A stretch of 64,000 nucleotides of DNA. Source: Nitrospiraceae bacterium (GTDB lineage: Bacteria; Nitrospirota; Nitrospiria; Nitrospirales; Nitrospiraceae). The stretch lies in contig JAHBWI010000009.1 of assembly GCA_019637075.1 (NCBI GenBank), positions 1 through 64,000 of the forward strand, in the 5' to 3' direction. Within the stretch, counting starts at the first letter, position 1. Each line of letters opens with the position of its first letter. The position numbers and the translations under genes are program-made. The notes under the pieces are model-generated. The model was not told the origin of the DNA. It worked only from the letters and a program-made list of their open reading frames with translations, and did not search any database. Shown one piece after another: positions 39,472 through 46,108 of the stretch.

Positions 39472-41340
39472 ATGAGTGCATCGATTGCCGCAACGCCAGA
39501 TCTTGTTACCGCTCTGCACAATAAAGCGACGCAGCTCCGCATCGACAGCGTCAAATCCACGACCGAGGCCGGCAGCGGCCATCCGTCGAGTTGCTGTTCC
39601 GCCGCGGATATCGTGTCCGTGTTGTTTTTCTCCGTCATGCGCTACGACCCGAAGAATCCGAAGCTCCCGAACAGCGACCGATTCGTGCTTTCCAAGGGGC
39701 ACGCGGCTCCGCTGCTCTATGCCGCCTGGGCCGAAGCCGGATTGTTTCCCGCTTCCGAACTGCTCAAGCTCCGCACCCTGACTTCGGATCTGGAAGGTCA
39801 CCCCACGCCGCGGTTGCCCTTCGTGGACATGGCGACCGGCTCGCTCGGCCAGGGCTTGTCGGCCGGTGTGGGCCTGGCGGTCAATGCCAAGTCGCTCGAC
39901 AAAGGCGACTACCGGACATACGTGCTCATGGGTGACGGCGAGTCCGTCGAAGGATCGGTGTGGGAAGCGGTGGAAGTCGCGCGGCAGGCCGGCCTCGATA
40001 ACCTGTGCGCCATCGTCGACATCAATCGCCTGGGGCAAAGCGACCCAACTATGTTGCAGCATGACATGGAAGCCTACCGCTCCCGTTGGGCCGGGTTCGG
40101 CTGGCATGCCATCGTCGTCGACGGCCATGATATTCCCGCTTTGTTGGCGGCGTTCGATGAAGCCGCTCGCACGAAAGGGCGCCCAACCGTCCTCCTCGCC
40201 AAGACTTTCAAAGGCCGTGGGATTTCGTTCGTCGAAAACTCTCCGGACTGGCATGGAAAACCGCTCAAGAAGGGCGAGGAAAGCCAAAAGGCTCTCGATG
40301 AGTTGGCGAAGCAGATGAAGGGCCAAATCGCACCCGTGCAGGTGAAGAAACCGAATGCCGCGCCTGCGGCTGCCCCCGGCGCTTCTCCGATGGCTCCTTC
40401 TCCCTTCAAAGTGGGAGACTCGGCTGCGACGCGCGAAGCGTTCGGTACGGCACTCTTGGCCTTGGGAGAAGCGAATCCCCACGTCGTCGCTTTGGATGCC
40501 GACGTGAAGAATTCAACCTATACGGACAAGTTCGGCAAGCGCTTTCCGCACCGATTCCTTGAGAACTTCATCGCCGAGCAAAACATGGTCGGCGCGGCAG
40601 CGGGCCTTGCCGCCTGCGGAAAGATTCCTTTTGCCGCGACCTTCGCCTGCTTCCTCACACGCGCCTATGATTTCATTCGTATGGCGGCGATCAGCGGTTC
40701 GAACATCAAGCTGGTGGGGACGCACGTCGGGGTGAGCATCGGAGAAGACGGCCCCTCGCAAATGGGCCTCGAGGATCTTGCGATGATGGCGGTGCAGCCG
40801 GGTGTCACGGTCCTCTACCCATCCGACGCGACCGCGATGTACAAGCTGGTCGAAACGGCCGCGGCCCACAAGGGCATGGTGTATCTGAGAGCCGGGCGAC
40901 CGAAGAACCCCGTCATCTATGGACCGGAAGAGACCTTCCGCATCGGCGGCTCGAAGGTGGTGCGCCAGAGCGCTGCGGACAAACTGACGATCGTGGCGGC
41001 GGGCGTCACCTTGTTCGAGGCCTTAAAGGCCCACGACCAACTGAAGGCGGCGGGCATTGCGACGCGAGTCGTGGACTTGTACAGCATCGTTCCGGTGGAT
41101 CGGGCGACGCTGGTCGAGTGCGCCCGGGCGACGGGCGGGCGGTTCCTGACGGTTGAGGATCACTATGCGCACGGCGGCCTCGGGGATACGGTCCTCGACG
41201 CCCTTGCATCCGAAGGGGTGCGGGTGCGTAAATTGGCCGTCCGGGCCGTCCCTCATAGCGGAAAGCCGGACGAGCTCGTGGACCATTTTGGAATCGGAGT
41301 ACGCTCCATTGTCGAAGCGGCCAAAGACATCGTCGGATAA
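39472..41340 (+). CDS. tkt: transketolase, short form
   Basis: A 622-residue enzyme, near the length of animal-type transketolases rather than the 660-residue E. coli form. The ATG at 39472 follows AAAGGA. Features: TEAGSGHPSSCCSAADIVSV at the N-terminus, the ThDP motif MGDGESVEGSVWEAVEVARQ ending in an Asn (VDIN), the catalytic region FIAEQNMVGAAAGLAACGKI and the C-terminal domain. A Pro/Ala linker (residues about 285-310) joins the halves. It interconverts pentose and triose/hexose phosphates in the Calvin or pentose phosphate route. The following regulator gene starts inside its 3' end. Confidence 0.94.
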   Translation: MSASIAATPDLVTALHNKATQLRIDSVKSTTEAGSGHPSSCCSAADIVSVLFFSVMRYDPKNPKLPNSDRFVLSKGHAAPLLYAAWAEAGLFPASELLKLRTLTSDLEGHPTPRLPFVDMATGSLGQGLSAGVGLAVNAKSLDKGDYRTYVLMGDGESVEGSVWEAVEVARQAGLDNLCAIVDINRLGQSDPTMLQHDMEAYRSRWAGFGWHAIVVDGHDIPALLAAFDEAARTKGRPTVLLAKTFKGRGISFVENSPDWHGKPLKKGEESQKALDELAKQMKGQIAPVQVKKPNAAPAAAPGASPMAPSPFKVGDSAATREAFGTALLALGEANPHVVALDADVKNSTYTDKFGKRFPHRFLENFIAEQNMVGAAAGLAACGKIPFAATFACFLTRAYDFIRMAAISGSNIKLVGTHVGVSIGEDGPSQMGLEDLAMMAVQPGVTVLYPSDATAMYKLVETAAAHKGMVYLRAGRPKNPVIYGPEETFRIGGSKVVRQSAADKLTIVAAGVTLFEALKAHDQLKAAGIATRVVDLYSIVPVDRATLVECARATGGRFLTVEDHYAHGGLGDTVLDALASEGVRVRKLAVRAVPHSGKPDELVDHFGIGVRSIVEAAKDIVG

Positions 41341-42037
41341 GCGGACCGATGCGGAAATCCCCGGTCCGCTCAAGCAGATTCCTCTCCTGAACATTTTGAG
41401 CGCGCAGGATCGAGAACAGGTCCTGCGCGAACTCACCGAAACACGGTTCGGCAAAGACCAATTTATCTTTCGCGAGGGCGATCCCACCGAGTATTTCCAC
41501 ATCGTGAAAGAGGGATCGGTCAAGTGCGTCAAGTCTTCGCCGGACGGCAAGGAATGCACGTTGAAGGTCCTCATGCCGGGCGACCTCTTTTGTTGTGACG
41601 CGGCGGCCTTCGACGGAGCCTACCATCCCGGCACGGCCAAGCCGATCGGCGAGGTCAGTGTCCTTCGTATGAGCAAGAAGGCCTACTTCGAGATGCTGCG
41701 ACGGAGTCCCGACGCGGCCCTCGAGGTCATCAAGTACCTCGGCAACCGATTGAACGAGGCCCAGGAGAAAGCCAAGGTGTTGGCCTTGGACCGGGCCGAT
41801 CAGCGTCTCGCCTCCCTGCTCGTGAACCTGGCGGAACGTGGCGGAATTCAAGAACCAAGCGGCCTTCGGTTGGCGGTGCGCCTGACACGCCAGGACATGG
41901 CCAATATGGTTGGGGTGACGACGGAAACCGCGATCCGCATCATGGCCAAGTTCAAGAAGGATCGCCTGGTTTCCGGGACAGCAGCCCGGTTAGTCATACG
42001 CGACCTGCAGAAGCTCAAAATTCTCGCCTCAGCCTAG
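41309..42037 (+). CDS. Crp/Fnr-family transcription regulator
   Basis: A 242-residue protein if TTG at 41309 is used (GGAG nine bases upstream); the start is uncertain and overlaps the transketolase end by 32 bp. The effector domain is a cupin-like beta-roll (PLLNILSAQDREQVLRELTE, FIFREGDPTEYFHIVKEGSV) followed by a dimerisation helix and a winged HTH (RLTRQDMANMVGVTTETAIR, IMAKFKKDRLVSG). Cys residues lie in VKCVKSSPDGKECTLK and FCCDAAAF, not in the N-terminal FNR cluster arrangement. It probably recognises the palindrome at 42068-42087 upstream of nirK. Confidence 0.88.
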   Translation: MSKRPKTSSDKRTDAEIPGPLKQIPLLNILSAQDREQVLRELTETRFGKDQFIFREGDPTEYFHIVKEGSVKCVKSSPDGKECTLKVLMPGDLFCCDAAAFDGAYHPGTAKPIGEVSVLRMSKKAYFEMLRRSPDAALEVIKYLGNRLNEAQEKAKVLALDRADQRLASLLVNLAERGGIQEPSGLRLAVRLTRQDMANMVGVTTETAIRIMAKFKKDRLVSGTAARLVIRDLQKLKILASA

Positions 42038-42067: not shown

Positions 42068-42087
42068 AATATGACAATAGTCATATT
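42068..42087. promoter_or_regulatory. Crp/Fnr-type operator upstream of nirK
   Basis: AATATGAC-AATA-GTCATATT is a perfect 20-bp inverted repeat with a 4-bp spacer, resembling the TTGAC-N4-GTCAA layout of Crp/Fnr-family sites. The best -10 candidate (TAGAGT, 42108-42113) would put the transcription start near 42120, so the operator centre lies close to -41.5, the class II activator position. It is 30 bp after the regulator stop. Confidence 0.65.
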
Positions 42088-42198: not shown

Positions 42199-43161
42199 AT
42201 GAATCGGATACGTACAGGACTGGATGCAGCGAGTCGATGGGGTCGGGTCGGCGCCGCAATGGGCTTGGCGCTCGGCTTGGTCGCCGGCGTCGCTGAGGCC
42301 AAAACTCACGAGATCAACATGACCGCGGTCGAGACGGATATCGTCATCGACGGCGGAGGGGAGAAATACGCGGCCTGGACCTTCAACGGCCAGTTCCCCG
42401 GACCGGTGGTGCGGGTCACTGAAGGCGACACGATCAAGTTCACCCTGACGAATCCGGCCACGAACAAACATCCGCACGCGATGGATTTCCATGCGGCGGA
42501 AATCGACTTCCTGAAAAACTACAAGGCCATCAACGCGGGCGAAACGATCACCTACACGTTCGTCGCCAAGAAGCCCGGCATCTTCTTCTACCACTGCGGC
42601 GCGCCCCCGATGATTCAGCATGTCGCCCGAGGCATGTTCGGCGCCGTCATCGTCGATCCCAAGAATCCCAAAGCCTGGCCGAAAGCCGATCGTGAGTATG
42701 TCCTCATCCAGTCCGAGTACTACAAGAACCCGGATGACGTGCAGGCCATGTTCGATCGGAAGTTCGACGGCATGATGTTCAACGGCGGCATCTTTAAGTA
42801 CCACCCGTTCGTCACCGGCGGCGGCAAGCTCGATGCCAAGCCGGGAGAGCGGGTCCGGATCTACTTCGTCAATGCCGGACCGAACGAATTTTCCGCATTC
42901 CACCCGATCGGCGAGATTTGGGACAATGTCTATGAGAGCGGCAACCCGGCCAACAACCTGAAGGGCGTGCAGACCTATGTGGTCGGGCCAGGCAGTGCGG
43001 CCACATTCGACGTGGTCGTGGAGTCCGCCGGTGCCTATCCGCTTGTGACGCACTCTCTCACCGGCGCGTTGCGGGGTGCGATCGCCGTGCTGTTGGCCGG
43101 TCCTGATGCGAAAGCGGCGCCCTTGATGCCGATGGTGCCGTGGGAGTTGCCCGCGAAGTAA
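42199..43161 (+). CDS. nirK: copper nitrite reductase, class II
   Basis: A 320-residue periplasmic enzyme; GGAGG lies 5 bases before the ATG. The signal peptide ends near VAEAKT. Two cupredoxin domains follow. Type 1 copper ligands: His93, Cys133, His141, Met146 (in HPHAMDFHAA and YHCGAPPMIQHVARGM). Type 2 ligands: His98, His132 and His285 (in LVTHSLTGALRG). The proton-shuttle residues Asp96 and His235 (in AFHPIGEIWDNVY) are also present. It reduces nitrite to NO. The short loop between Cys and Met fits the compact AniA/ammonia-oxidiser group. It heads a five-gene cluster. Confidence 0.93.
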   Translation: MNRIRTGLDAASRWGRVGAAMGLALGLVAGVAEAKTHEINMTAVETDIVIDGGGEKYAAWTFNGQFPGPVVRVTEGDTIKFTLTNPATNKHPHAMDFHAAEIDFLKNYKAINAGETITYTFVAKKPGIFFYHCGAPPMIQHVARGMFGAVIVDPKNPKAWPKADREYVLIQSEYYKNPDDVQAMFDRKFDGMMFNGGIFKYHPFVTGGGKLDAKPGERVRIYFVNAGPNEFSAFHPIGEIWDNVYESGNPANNLKGVQTYVVGPGSAATFDVVVESAGAYPLVTHSLTGALRGAIAVLLAGPDAKAAPLMPMVPWELPAK

Positions 43162-43180
43162 GAAGAATGGCGGGTCTTGC

Positions 43181-43210
43181 AGCCGGCCGGTCCCAACGGA
43201 TCGGCCGGCT
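43181..43210 (+). other. stem-loop between nirK and the next gene
   Basis: AGCCGGCCG and CGGCCGGCT form a perfect 9-bp stem around a 12-base loop. No T-run follows; the downstream ribosome binding site starts about 5 bases later. It may stabilise nirK mRNA, adjust the ratio of nirK to the downstream genes, or act as a partial terminator. Confidence 0.5.
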
Positions 43211-43225
43211 CCCCCAGGAGATTCT

Positions 43226-43609
43226 ATGCGGCATCTGAGCGATAGCTTTGGGGCGAGAGGGCGATGGATGCGCTGCGTGATTCTGACGCCGGTGATCTGG
43301 TGCGCCGCTTCGGTGGCGACCGGTGCTGAAACGGATCACTCGAGGGAACGGGTCGCCCTGATGCTCACAGGCGCCGGATGTCCGGTGCAGCGAGCCAGGA
43401 TGGCCGCAGTTCTGTCGGAGTTCCCGTCAGTGCGACACGTCGAATTCGACACGGTGCCCGACCATGTGCTGGTCGATGTCGAGTCCGGGAGCGTGGCGCC
43501 GGAGTCGCTGCGACAAGCCGTCCTCCGGAGTTTAGGAGAGACGAAGGGCTGTCAGGTCGAGGTCATGACATCATGCATCACCGCAAGCCCGGCGTTCCTC
43601 ACCCGTTGA
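43226..43609 (+). CDS. small secreted HMA-like protein
   Basis: A 127-residue protein with AGGAG before its ATG and a signal peptide (CVILTPVIWCAASVATGAET; an ATG at 43268 would also give one). The mature part resembles a heavy-metal-associated ferredoxin-like fold: VALMLTGAGCPVQRARMAAV, then FPSVRHVEFDTVPDHVLVDV. The usual MxCxxC is reduced to a single Cys (GAGC). It may carry copper to NirK or a partner, but the missing second Cys leaves this open. Its 3' end overlaps the next gene by 37 bp. Confidence 0.6.
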   Translation: MRHLSDSFGARGRWMRCVILTPVIWCAASVATGAETDHSRERVALMLTGAGCPVQRARMAAVLSEFPSVRHVEFDTVPDHVLVDVESGSVAPESLRQAVLRSLGETKGCQVEVMTSCITASPAFLTR

Positions 43610-44307
43610 CGGACGGGCCTCCGCCCAGGCCCAGCGACGGAGATCGCGGTCCTCCCACGCGTTGGCCGTTTCAGTCCGATTGTCGCGCGACGGCCGCTCG
43701 CCGTCTCCTGCGGTCGGTAGGCTATAGGGTCGCGCTCTTCTTCGCATTCCTGCTCTCCAATGGAACCTTGTGGGCACAGGAATCCATTCCGGAGATCTTT
43801 CCCCTGCGTCCTTTCAACGTCGATATCGCAATCCGCCAGCAAACGTTTGCGCCGGATGATCGAGAAATCGGCGTGCAGGTCGGGGTCACCGCATTTCGTT
43901 ACGGCCAGATCGAGGTGCGCACCACCTACCAATATTTCAGCATTCACACGCGAGAGTTTCAGACCGACCAACATTCGCTGTTCCTCAATCCCCGCTGGAA
44001 CAACTTCATCGACATTTTGGATTTTCCCAAGCACAAACCCTTGAACCGCACGATACGGCATCTCTTGTTCGGCCCTCTCGAGGATCGGGCGGTGCCGTAT
44101 ATCGGATTGTTGGCCGGAGGCGTCTTGCCGGGGCCGGGCAACAATGGGCCAGGACATTTGATAGGCGGACAATTGGGCGTTCGCTTCCCGGTTGCCCGGG
44201 GTCTGTCTGTCGACGTGGGCATGCAGTACACCCAGTATGGCGTGGATTTTCGGGGCGAAGCAGGACAGGCACAACAATGGGTATTCTTGACCGGCGTGCG
44301 ATTCTGA
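43573..44307 (+). CDS. predicted outer-membrane beta-barrel protein
   Basis: A 244-residue protein with an unusual Pro/Arg-rich leader of about 45 residues before a signal peptide (GYRVALFFAFLLSNGTLWAQ). The mature part has alternating strands (VDIAIRQQTFAPDDREIGVQ, VGVTAFRYGQIEVRTTYQYF, GGQLGVRFPVARGLSVDVGM) and ends in Phe (LTGVRF), typical of Bam-assembled barrels. It is probably an eight-stranded outer-membrane protein. It overlaps both neighbours, so it is translated with them. No family is recognised. Confidence 0.65.
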   Translation: MHHRKPGVPHPLTDGPPPRPSDGDRGPPTRWPFQSDCRATAARRLLRSVGYRVALFFAFLLSNGTLWAQESIPEIFPLRPFNVDIAIRQQTFAPDDREIGVQVGVTAFRYGQIEVRTTYQYFSIHTREFQTDQHSLFLNPRWNNFIDILDFPKHKPLNRTIRHLLFGPLEDRAVPYIGLLAGGVLPGPGNNGPGHLIGGQLGVRFPVARGLSVDVGMQYTQYGVDFRGEAGQAQQWVFLTGVRF

Positions 44308-45326
44308 TCCGGCGGATGTCGCAGGGAGTGGTCCTATGGGCTCTCTGCGTGGCCCTAACGGGCTGCGGCTTGCTCATCGATGCGGTCGAGCGGGTCATCC
44401 CCGTTGCAGCGAACGAAGTCGAAACGATCTGCGAGCGAGGACGGGTGCAGGTGGGTTTGGCGGTCGAGCCCTTTCGCCCCTTCGTCTTTCCCGCGATCTG
44501 GACCGACGAAGGCGCACGGGTGACGGGGCTGGACGTGGAGCTTGTCCAAGCGCTCAGCGAGGGACTGTCTCAACGCTGCGGCCGCCCCGTGACCCCGGTC
44601 TTGCACCTCGTCCGTTTCCGGGAACTCTTCCGGTTGCTCAACGAGTCGCAGCTGGATCTCTTCGTCTCAGCGGTCGTCGCCAATACCCCCGCGCCCGCGC
44701 GGGCCGGAGTCGCGTACTCCGTCCCCTATTTCTATGACGGCGGCATCAGTGGCATCACCAAGCGCGGAGAGGTTCGTCAGCAGGTCAGTCAGGCCATGCG
44801 GGCTGCTTCGTCGACACTCCCGTTTGCCTCGGCGGTGTCGGCGCTCCACGACCTGACCATCGCCGTGCAAAACGACACGGCCGCGCACCACTATGCGGTG
44901 GCGAATCTGACGGCGAATCGGCTCATCGTCTGTGATTCGTTGCCGGCGGCGTTCGAATATGCCGATGCGGCGGCAGACCGGCCGATCGACGTCATCCTGG
45001 GTGCCCAGCCCGTACTTGACCATATTGTTTCGCATGTGCGGAAAGATTGGAGTCTGCTGGCCTCGGAGGACGGACGCGTATGGCGGTTGACCAGGGACCA
45101 GTATGCCGTGGCCATGGCGGAGGAAAGCTATCATCTCCGGTGGCTGGTCAACGACGTGCTCTTCCAGTTGGATGAAGCCGGCCGTCTCGCACAGATGCGG
45201 CGGCGCTGGCTCGAGGAGGACTATGCCTTTCCCCGTCGCGCCTCGACGGAGGGGCTGACCTTCGATGTCGAGAAAATGGTGACCCACTATATGCAAGGGA
45301 CCTGTCGGGAGGAGTCTCCTCCCTGA
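44277..45326 (+). CDS. lipoprotein with periplasmic solute-binding (SBP_bac_3-like) fold
   Basis: A 349-residue lipoprotein (lipobox ALTGC, Cys30; an internal ATG at 44316 is possible). The mature domain follows the type II binding-protein pattern: ICERGRVQVGLAVEPFRPFV, VTGLDVELVQALSEGLSQRC, LLNESQLDLFVSAVVANTPA, and VAYSVPYFYDGGISGITKRG in the hinge region. The second lobe has LTIAVQNDTAAHHYAVANLT. Such proteins bind amino acids or small organic ions for a transporter or sensor. No transporter gene follows, so it may be a sensor or a scavenger. Confidence 0.75.
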   Translation: MGILDRRAILIRRMSQGVVLWALCVALTGCGLLIDAVERVIPVAANEVETICERGRVQVGLAVEPFRPFVFPAIWTDEGARVTGLDVELVQALSEGLSQRCGRPVTPVLHLVRFRELFRLLNESQLDLFVSAVVANTPAPARAGVAYSVPYFYDGGISGITKRGEVRQQVSQAMRAASSTLPFASAVSALHDLTIAVQNDTAAHHYAVANLTANRLIVCDSLPAAFEYADAAADRPIDVILGAQPVLDHIVSHVRKDWSLLASEDGRVWRLTRDQYAVAMAEESYHLRWLVNDVLFQLDEAGRLAQMRRRWLEEDYAFPRRASTEGLTFDVEKMVTHYMQGTCREESPP

Positions 45327-45349
45327 GACGGGACAACGGAGGTGGAGTG

Positions 45350-46108
45350 ATGCGGAATCGGTTTCGATTGGGCCTCGCGATGGGAGTGCTGGGCTGCCTG
45401 TGCTGTCCCCTCTTAGGCGTAGCGGCTGAACGTCCAGAGGCGGAAGAAACGGCTCGGCTTCTGGCGAAGCTCCTCGAGTCGGGACGAGCGGTCATCGAGC
45501 GCAATCAGACCTTGATCGACGACCCGCACAAGGGCGACAAGGGGTTCACCCCGGAGTCGTTCGAGCAGCAACTGGTCACGGAGTTTCGCGGGAGAACCGG
45601 GATCGATCTGGCGACCCTAGCGAAGCAGCCTCCGTCGCCGCTCTTGCCTGCCCTGGCGAAAGAATTGTTGCCGGCGCTGGTCGTGGCCAGCAAGGACGTG
45701 GTTGCCGCGGCTCAGGTCGTGATCAACCAGCGTGGGATTGCGTACAAGAACTTCATTCCCGCCACCTATGGGAGTCAGGCCTCGGCTCGCTTTTCCAAGA
45801 CCTCGCAGGTGCGGCTGAAGCAGACGACGTTGACGCCGAGAAATCCCAAGAACGAGCCGGACGAATATGAAGCATCTGTCCTCAAGTGGCTGTCTGGCAG
45901 GCCCAGAGCCGAAGCTTATGTGAGTGAATTGACGGAAGAAGGGAAAATGCTTCGCGTGGTCATGCCGATCTACTACGCGAAACCCTGTCTGGCTTGCCAC
46001 GGCGAGCCGAAGGGCGAACTCGACATCTCGGGCTATCCGAAAGAAGGGCACCGAGAAGGCGATTTGGCCGGCGCGATCACCGTGACCGCGCCCTTAACCG
46101 GACGGTGA
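45350..46108 (+). CDS. DUF3365 (Tll0287-like) c-type heme protein
   Basis: A 252-residue exported protein, signal peptide GLAMGVLGCLCCPLLGVAAE. The DUF3365 pattern is clear: VINQRGIAYKNFIPATYGSQ, ARFSKTSQVRLKQTTLTPRN, PDEYEASVLKWL, then PIYYAKPCLACHGEP where Cys213, Cys216 and His217 bind one heme c. It probably relays redox or NO/nitrite information, or carries electrons. It is the last gene of the nirK cluster, 23 bp after the lipoprotein gene. A weak inverted repeat at 46111-46157 follows. Confidence 0.82.
   Translation: MRNRFRLGLAMGVLGCLCCPLLGVAAERPEAEETARLLAKLLESGRAVIERNQTLIDDPHKGDKGFTPESFEQQLVTEFRGRTGIDLATLAKQPPSPLLPALAKELLPALVVASKDVVAAAQVVINQRGIAYKNFIPATYGSQASARFSKTSQVRLKQTTLTPRNPKNEPDEYEASVLKWLSGRPRAEAYVSELTEEGKMLRVVMPIYYAKPCLACHGEPKGELDISGYPKEGHREGDLAGAITVTAPLTGR

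What the first reader, a model, noticed from the sequence alone, without database searches (positions are those of the whole stretch)
42199..46108. nirK cluster with four uncharacterised envelope proteins
nirK is followed by a single-Cys HMA-like secreted protein, a beta-barrel protein, a solute-binding-type lipoprotein and a DUF3365 c-heme protein; the last four overlap or nearly touch. Together they could deliver copper, pass NO or nitrite through the outer membrane, sense a ligand and relay electrons. I know of no described system with this set.
Basis: inference. Interest (0 to 1): 0.7.

Follow-up and report, generated by a model that had tools for sequence, protein, structure and literature searches.

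The report
Nitrospira nirK plus two separable modules
The five genes are really there, but they are two separate units from Nitrospira-type bacteria: a nitrite-reductase gene with a small copper-binding-type secreted protein, and an undescribed three-gene outer-envelope module (barrel, ligand-binding lipoprotein, haem protein) that sits behind this gene in about half of the genomes that carry it and elsewhere in the rest.

Summary
In detail: nirK (42199-43161) is followed on the same strand by an HMA-fold secreted protein, a small outer-membrane-barrel-type protein, a family-3 solute-binding lipoprotein and a DUF3365/Tll0287 c-haem protein. The 'single five-part system' reading is only partly supported. 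Barrel, lipoprotein and haem protein form a tight trio found only in Nitrospiraceae among the genomes searched. In 85 trio-bearing genomes the barrel gene lies directly behind nirK in 43 and elsewhere in 42. Which state holds follows the NirK type: 43/44 linked with the CRP-adjacent type, 0/40 with the other. Trio copies away from nirK occupy at least four other chromosomal sites. The HMA protein is a separate nirK-side gene: it persists where the trio is lost and is absent in some loci where the trio stays. It is not single-Cys; three cysteines are invariant. A CRP/FNR-type palindrome lies upstream of nirK in 59/61 loci and upstream of none of the four other genes. The hairpin after nirK is a U-tract terminator in 10/13 loci lacking HMA and in 0/39 with it, so nirK-HMA read-through is likely. 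Best guess: HMA is a periplasmic Cu(I) protein co-expressed with NirK; the trio is an outer-membrane-anchored ligand/NO-or-redox module. Function is inferred, not shown.

The parts
41333..42037 (+). CRP/FNR-family regulator next to nirK (start codon uncertain; ORF opens at 41153)
   Evidence: PF00027 E 1.3e-17 and PF13545 E 2.7e-17; adjacent to nirK in most type-A loci
42072..42083 (.). CRP/FNR-type palindrome TGACAATAGTCA, probable operator of nirK
   Evidence: TGAYnnnnRTCA upstream of nirK in 59 of 61 CRP-nirK loci, background 0.047 per 300 bp; on its own in the window not above chance (4 seen, 3.2 expected)
42199..43161 (+). nirK, copper nitrite reductase
   Evidence: phmmer to PDB 4kns E 4.8e-104; Cu-ligand motifs present
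43181..43210 (+). GC-rich hairpin after nirK, no U-tract here
   Evidence: a stem in 52 of 54 loci; U-tract in 10/13 HMA-less and 0/39 HMA-bearing loci
43226..43609 (+). secreted HMA-fold protein with C52, C109, M114, C117
43573..44307 (+). small outer-membrane beta-barrel-type protein (trio gene 1)
   Evidence: OMP_b-brl weak
44277..45326 (+). family-3 solute-binding-fold lipoprotein (trio gene 2); the start at 44316 fits the lipoprotein signal better
   Evidence: SBP_bac_3 E 5.9e-10; AF2 model aligns to amino-acid-binding proteins at Z 21-24
45350..46108 (+). stand-alone DUF3365/Tll0287-like (sCache_heme) c-haem protein (trio gene 3), CLACH motif
   Evidence: PF11845 E 3.7e-25

Best explanation
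Two functional units abut here. Unit 1 is NirK with an HMA-fold periplasmic protein, switched on by the neighbouring CRP/FNR (NnrR-like) regulator; the HMA protein most likely holds or hands over Cu(I) in the periplasm, using Cys52 of the old metal loop and probably Cys109 just before the last strand. Unit 2 is a Nitrospiraceae-specific trio: an outer-membrane barrel, an outer-membrane-anchored solute-binding-fold lipoprotein and a periplasmic haem-c Cache protein. The trio most likely works as one envelope device in which the lipoprotein binds a small ligand near the barrel and the haem protein reads or buffers NO or redox state. It is not dedicated to NirK; in one NirK lineage it lies behind nirK and probably shares its transcript where HMA is present. 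Shown: gene content, linkage pattern, conserved motifs, conserved palindrome and hairpins. Inferred: localisation, co-transcription, regulation by the neighbouring CRP protein, Cu(I) binding, ligand and haem function.
For: Trio genes stay together in nearly all loci, on one strand with short gaps, and only in Nitrospiraceae. Linkage follows NirK type: 43/44 type A linked, 0/40 type B. The SBP tree groups trios by chromosomal site, with nearly all nirK-site copies in one supported branch of 46 rows (42 nirK, two contig-cut, two moved away). HMA remains after trio decay in L046 and is absent with the trio present in L118, L052, L054, L058. Palindrome upstream of nirK in 59/61 loci and none upstream of HMA, barrel, SBP or Tll. 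Hairpin with U-tract 10/13 without HMA, 0/39 with it. HMA profile hits Cu chaperones. sCache_heme domains are reported to bind c-haem, and a signalling member without the axial Cys binds NO with slow release (PMC12889525); no Cys other than the CxxCH pair is conserved in this protein family.
Against: The same preprint finds the stand-alone sCache_heme protein it tested to be redox-like with weak NO binding, also after loss of its axial Cys. No ligand for the lipoprotein is known. HMA homologues with the same C-terminal motif also lie away from nirK and near no obvious cuproenzyme. The barrel assignment is weak. No transcript data were examined. The loci are related, and several are the same genome fetched twice (for example L038/L096), so counts overstate independence.
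Confidence: 0.45

Rival explanations
1. One NirK-dedicated five-protein system: copper delivery, solute passage, sensing and electron relay all serve NirK.
For: The five genes are contiguous in many type-A NirK genomes of Nitrospiraceae; the barrel is linked in 43 of 44 trio-bearing type-A genomes.
Against: Half of trio-bearing genomes keep the trio away from nirK; 10 type-A genomes lack it; in L046 nirK and HMA are intact while the trio has decayed; no shared palindrome at off-nirK trios.
Confidence: 0.12
2. The trio is a generic redox or electron-transfer accessory (haem-c shuttle plus envelope partners) with no sensing role; its position behind nirK is a genomic accident kept by descent.
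For: The stand-alone sCache_heme protein tested so far looks redox-like (PMC12889525); trio sites are clade-specific and inherited; one copy lies before a cbb3-type CcoN-CcoO-cytochrome c fusion.
Against: At that site and in L078 the haem gene is replaced by an unrelated SHOCT-domain lipoprotein-like gene, so barrel and SBP can do without the haem protein; an SBP fold is not expected in a pure electron shuttle.
Confidence: 0.3
3. The lipoprotein and barrel form an uptake or scavenging route for a small nitrogen compound.
For: SBP fold at Z 21-24 to amino-acid-binding proteins; one trio site lies beside an arginase-family hydrolase and an amino-acid permease.
Against: No ABC permease or ATPase was recognised among the recurrent neighbours (read by eye); by alignment the acidic residue that holds the alpha-amino group in GlnH/HisJ-type proteins (recalled, not tested) is replaced by A, K, Q or N, and the carboxylate Arg is kept only in part.
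Confidence: 0.13

Closest known systems
N. europaea-type copper nitrite reductase NirK (PDB 4kns; organism from memory)
   Same: Closest solved sequence; Cu-site motifs kept.
   Different: In the Nitrospira loci it is followed by HMA and/or the trio; a CRP gene and palindrome are adjacent.
HMA copper chaperones (CopZ, Atox1/ATP7 domains)
   Same: Fold and first metal-loop Cys.
   Different: Secreted, second loop Cys missing, new invariant C109 and a C-terminal MxSC motif.
sCache_heme / DUF3365 / Tll0287 proteins
   Same: PF11845 match and CxxCH.
   Different: No conserved Cys outside CxxCH, so the axial Cys reported for Tll0287 and the P. putida protein is missing; encoded in a fixed trio.
Family-3 solute-binding proteins (ArgBP, GlnH)
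   Same: Fold and profile match.
   Different: Lipoprotein without transporter partner, conserved C-terminal extension ending QGxCR, four further invariant Cys, amino-acid clamp residues not kept.

Membership tests
Copper nitrite reductase (NirK) | two cupredoxin domains with T1 and T2 Cu ligands | tested here: met
   alignment to 4kns over residues 35-304; motifs
Copper nitrite reductase (NirK) | nitrite reductase activity | not testable with these tools
   needs the purified enzyme
HMA copper chaperone | ferredoxin-like HMA fold | tested here: met
HMA copper chaperone | CxxC metal-binding loop | tested here: not met
   only C52 is kept; C109 and C117 invariant elsewhere
HMA copper chaperone | binds Cu(I) | not testable with these tools
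   inference from fold and cysteines
sCache_heme (DUF3365) | PF11845 domain with CxxCH | tested here: met
sCache_heme (DUF3365) | axial Cys of the Tll0287-like stand-alone group | tested here: not met
   no conserved Cys besides CxxCH in 18 sequences; the N-terminal half was not aligned to 5b82, so the replacing ligand is unknown
SBP_bac_3 transporter component | SBP_bac_3 fold | tested here: met
SBP_bac_3 transporter component | neighbouring ABC permease and ATPase | tested here: not met
   none recognised among recurrent neighbours
Outer-membrane beta-barrel | recognised barrel profile | tested here: inconclusive

The most novel reading that the evidence does not exclude
The trio is a previously undescribed outer-membrane NO or redox-sensing device in which a solute-binding-fold lipoprotein and a barrel work with an NO-binding haem Cache protein, placed by one Nitrospira lineage under nirK control.
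Probability: 0.2. Interest if true: 0.75.

Novelty: new variant of a known kind. Interest (0 to 1): 0.5.

Why it matters
Nitrospira are major nitrite oxidisers, yet the role of their NirK is unsettled (PMC6606698) and no NO reductase was identified in the Nitrospira MAGs discussed in PMC8510549. A conserved CRP-type palindrome and HMA gene at nirK, and a lineage-specific haem/SBP/barrel trio, give concrete genes to delete or express in order to ask how these cells handle NO and copper. The link to the 2026 report of NO-binding DUF3365 domains makes one step directly testable.

Tried and rejected
Axial-ligand comparison of the haem protein with Tll0287 (5b82) covered only the C-terminal half, and the Tll0287 crystal paper is not held, so the distal ligand stays unknown. 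Porin-cytochrome electron conduit: rejected by reasoning, since there is a single haem and a barrel of about 180-200 residues. ABC importer: rejected, no permease or ATPase neighbours recognised. MxaJ/XoxJ-like role: considered from memory only; no such NCBIfam model appeared at E<1 for the lipoprotein, which does not exclude it. Plasmid carriage: no tblastn match of the barrel in PLSDB. Separate sigma-70-type promoter before HMA or the trio: none found in the window, but the scan covers one promoter type only and finds none before nirK either. Paper searches for a described nirK/HMA/trio set in Nitrospira found none. A first hairpin script misjudged U-tracts by extending stems into A-U pairs; one search replaces it.

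Full report
Observation. The window lies in a 4.06-Mb genome of 22 contigs whose relatives, by the record titles of related loci, are Nitrospira/Nitrospiraceae. Downstream of a transketolase gene and a CRP/FNR-family gene lie nirK (42199-43161), an HMA-like gene (43226-43609), a barrel-type gene (43573-44307), a solute-binding lipoprotein gene (44277 or 44316 to 45326) and a DUF3365 gene (45350-46108), all on the + strand. Profile searches support NirK, the SBP_bac_3 fold and the DUF3365 domain clearly, the HMA fold through its homologues, and the barrel only weakly.

Correction on the HMA protein. Thirteen homologues share three invariant cysteines, C52, C109 and C117, and M114. C52 is the first Cys of the usual metal loop; the second is missing. 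By the topology of the fold (inference), C109, just before the last strand (E110-114 in the model), should lie near C52. The PDB matches are copper chaperones and copper-ATPase domains.

Two modules. In 61 genomes NirK occurs in 51, the barrel in 19 and the SBP in 20, one of the latter a fragment. Barrel, SBP and haem gene form a block with short gaps. Of these, L088-L126 carry nirK or nirK-site flanks and most of the rest carry the trio without nirK. Recurrent other sites are: beside lgt and a UvrD-like helicase gene; beside tadA and an anti-sigma-like gene with a chlorite-dismutase-like gene nearby; beside an arginase-family hydrolase and an amino-acid permease; and beside a cbb3-type oxidase fusion, where in L083 (and at another site in L078) a SHOCT-domain protein replaces the haem gene. 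Names of these neighbours not scanned against Pfam are by eye.

Linkage by NirK type. Among 396 Nitrospirota genomes the barrel profile hits 86, of which 85 are in the window's own family; the other is a short hit at E 7e-7. Cross-tabulating barrel and NirK places for genomes searched with both: with NirK at 82% identity or more, 43 linked, 1 unlinked, 10 without barrel; with NirK at 70-75%, 0 linked, 40 unlinked, 6 without barrel; one genome with only a distant NirK-like match is unlinked. The genomes without a barrel are those the tool listed, not all. The SBP tree puts nearly all nirK-site copies in one supported branch of 46 rows, which also holds two contig-cut copies and the L078/L083 pair that moved away.

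HMA and trio behave independently. In L046 nirK and HMA are intact, barrel and SBP are gone and the haem gene is decayed. L040, L045, L047 and L061 have HMA without the trio; L052, L054, L058 and L118 (N. moscoviensis) have the trio without HMA. HMA homologues also occur away from nirK.

Regulation. A palindrome TGAYnnnnRTCA precedes nirK in 59 of 61 CRP-nirK loci, with 0.047 expected per 300 bp, and precedes none of HMA, barrel, SBP or Tll, at nirK or elsewhere. Some of these loci are duplicates of one genome. A published analysis assigned an NnrR-type CRP/FNR protein to a Nitrospira MAG (PMC8510549); whether it is this gene was not tested. A GC-rich hairpin follows nirK in 52 of 54 loci; it carries a U-tract in 10 of 13 loci without HMA and in none of 39 with HMA (Fisher p 1.8e-8, not corrected for relatedness). 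The simplest reading is nirK-HMA read-through where HMA is present, and termination after nirK in several HMA-less loci, so that a trio there needs its own promoter.

Haem protein. The DUF3365 family was recently redefined as a Cache domain with covalent haem c; a signalling member without the axial Cys binds NO with slow release, a stand-alone member with Cys/His ligation does not (PMC12889525). The trio protein is stand-alone and has no conserved Cys besides CxxCH. Its NO chemistry is therefore open. A 43%-identical paralogue elsewhere in this genome, of the same subtype, also lacks that Cys.

Lipoprotein. The model aligns to amino-acid-binding proteins, but the alignment shows no acidic residue at the place that, from memory, holds the ligand amino group in GlnH/HisJ, and only partial retention of the carboxylate Arg. 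The residue after the lipobox Cys is Gly, which in E. coli favours the outer membrane (established rule, not tested here). A conserved C-terminal extension (EGL...HYxQGxCR) suggests a partner surface (inference).

Noticed in passing
G000:C2:91934-92842 (L068): A second NirK copy in the same genome, 62% identical to the window NirK; none of the window-cluster query genes was found beside it.
   Followed up: partly
window 42072-42083 and relatives: CRP/FNR-type palindrome conserved upstream of nirK in nearly all CRP-linked loci, absent in the four nirK loci L062-L064 and L067, which lack the CRP gene nearby.
   Followed up: yes
L083:3146-4027 and L078:9878-10795: A SHOCT-domain lipoprotein-like protein replaces the haem gene behind barrel and SBP.
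   Followed up: partly
L045:6663-7565 and L047:7661-8620: A FocA/NirC-type channel gene (by eye) lies downstream of HMA on the nirK strand where the trio is absent.
   Followed up: no
L081:10609-11757 and L081:6346-7854: Trio beside an arginase-family hydrolase and an amino-acid permease.
   Followed up: partly
L172:5974-6399 and L173:5905-6333: HMA homologues with a similar C-terminal GCISA motif beside an SBP-like gene, away from nirK.
   Followed up: no
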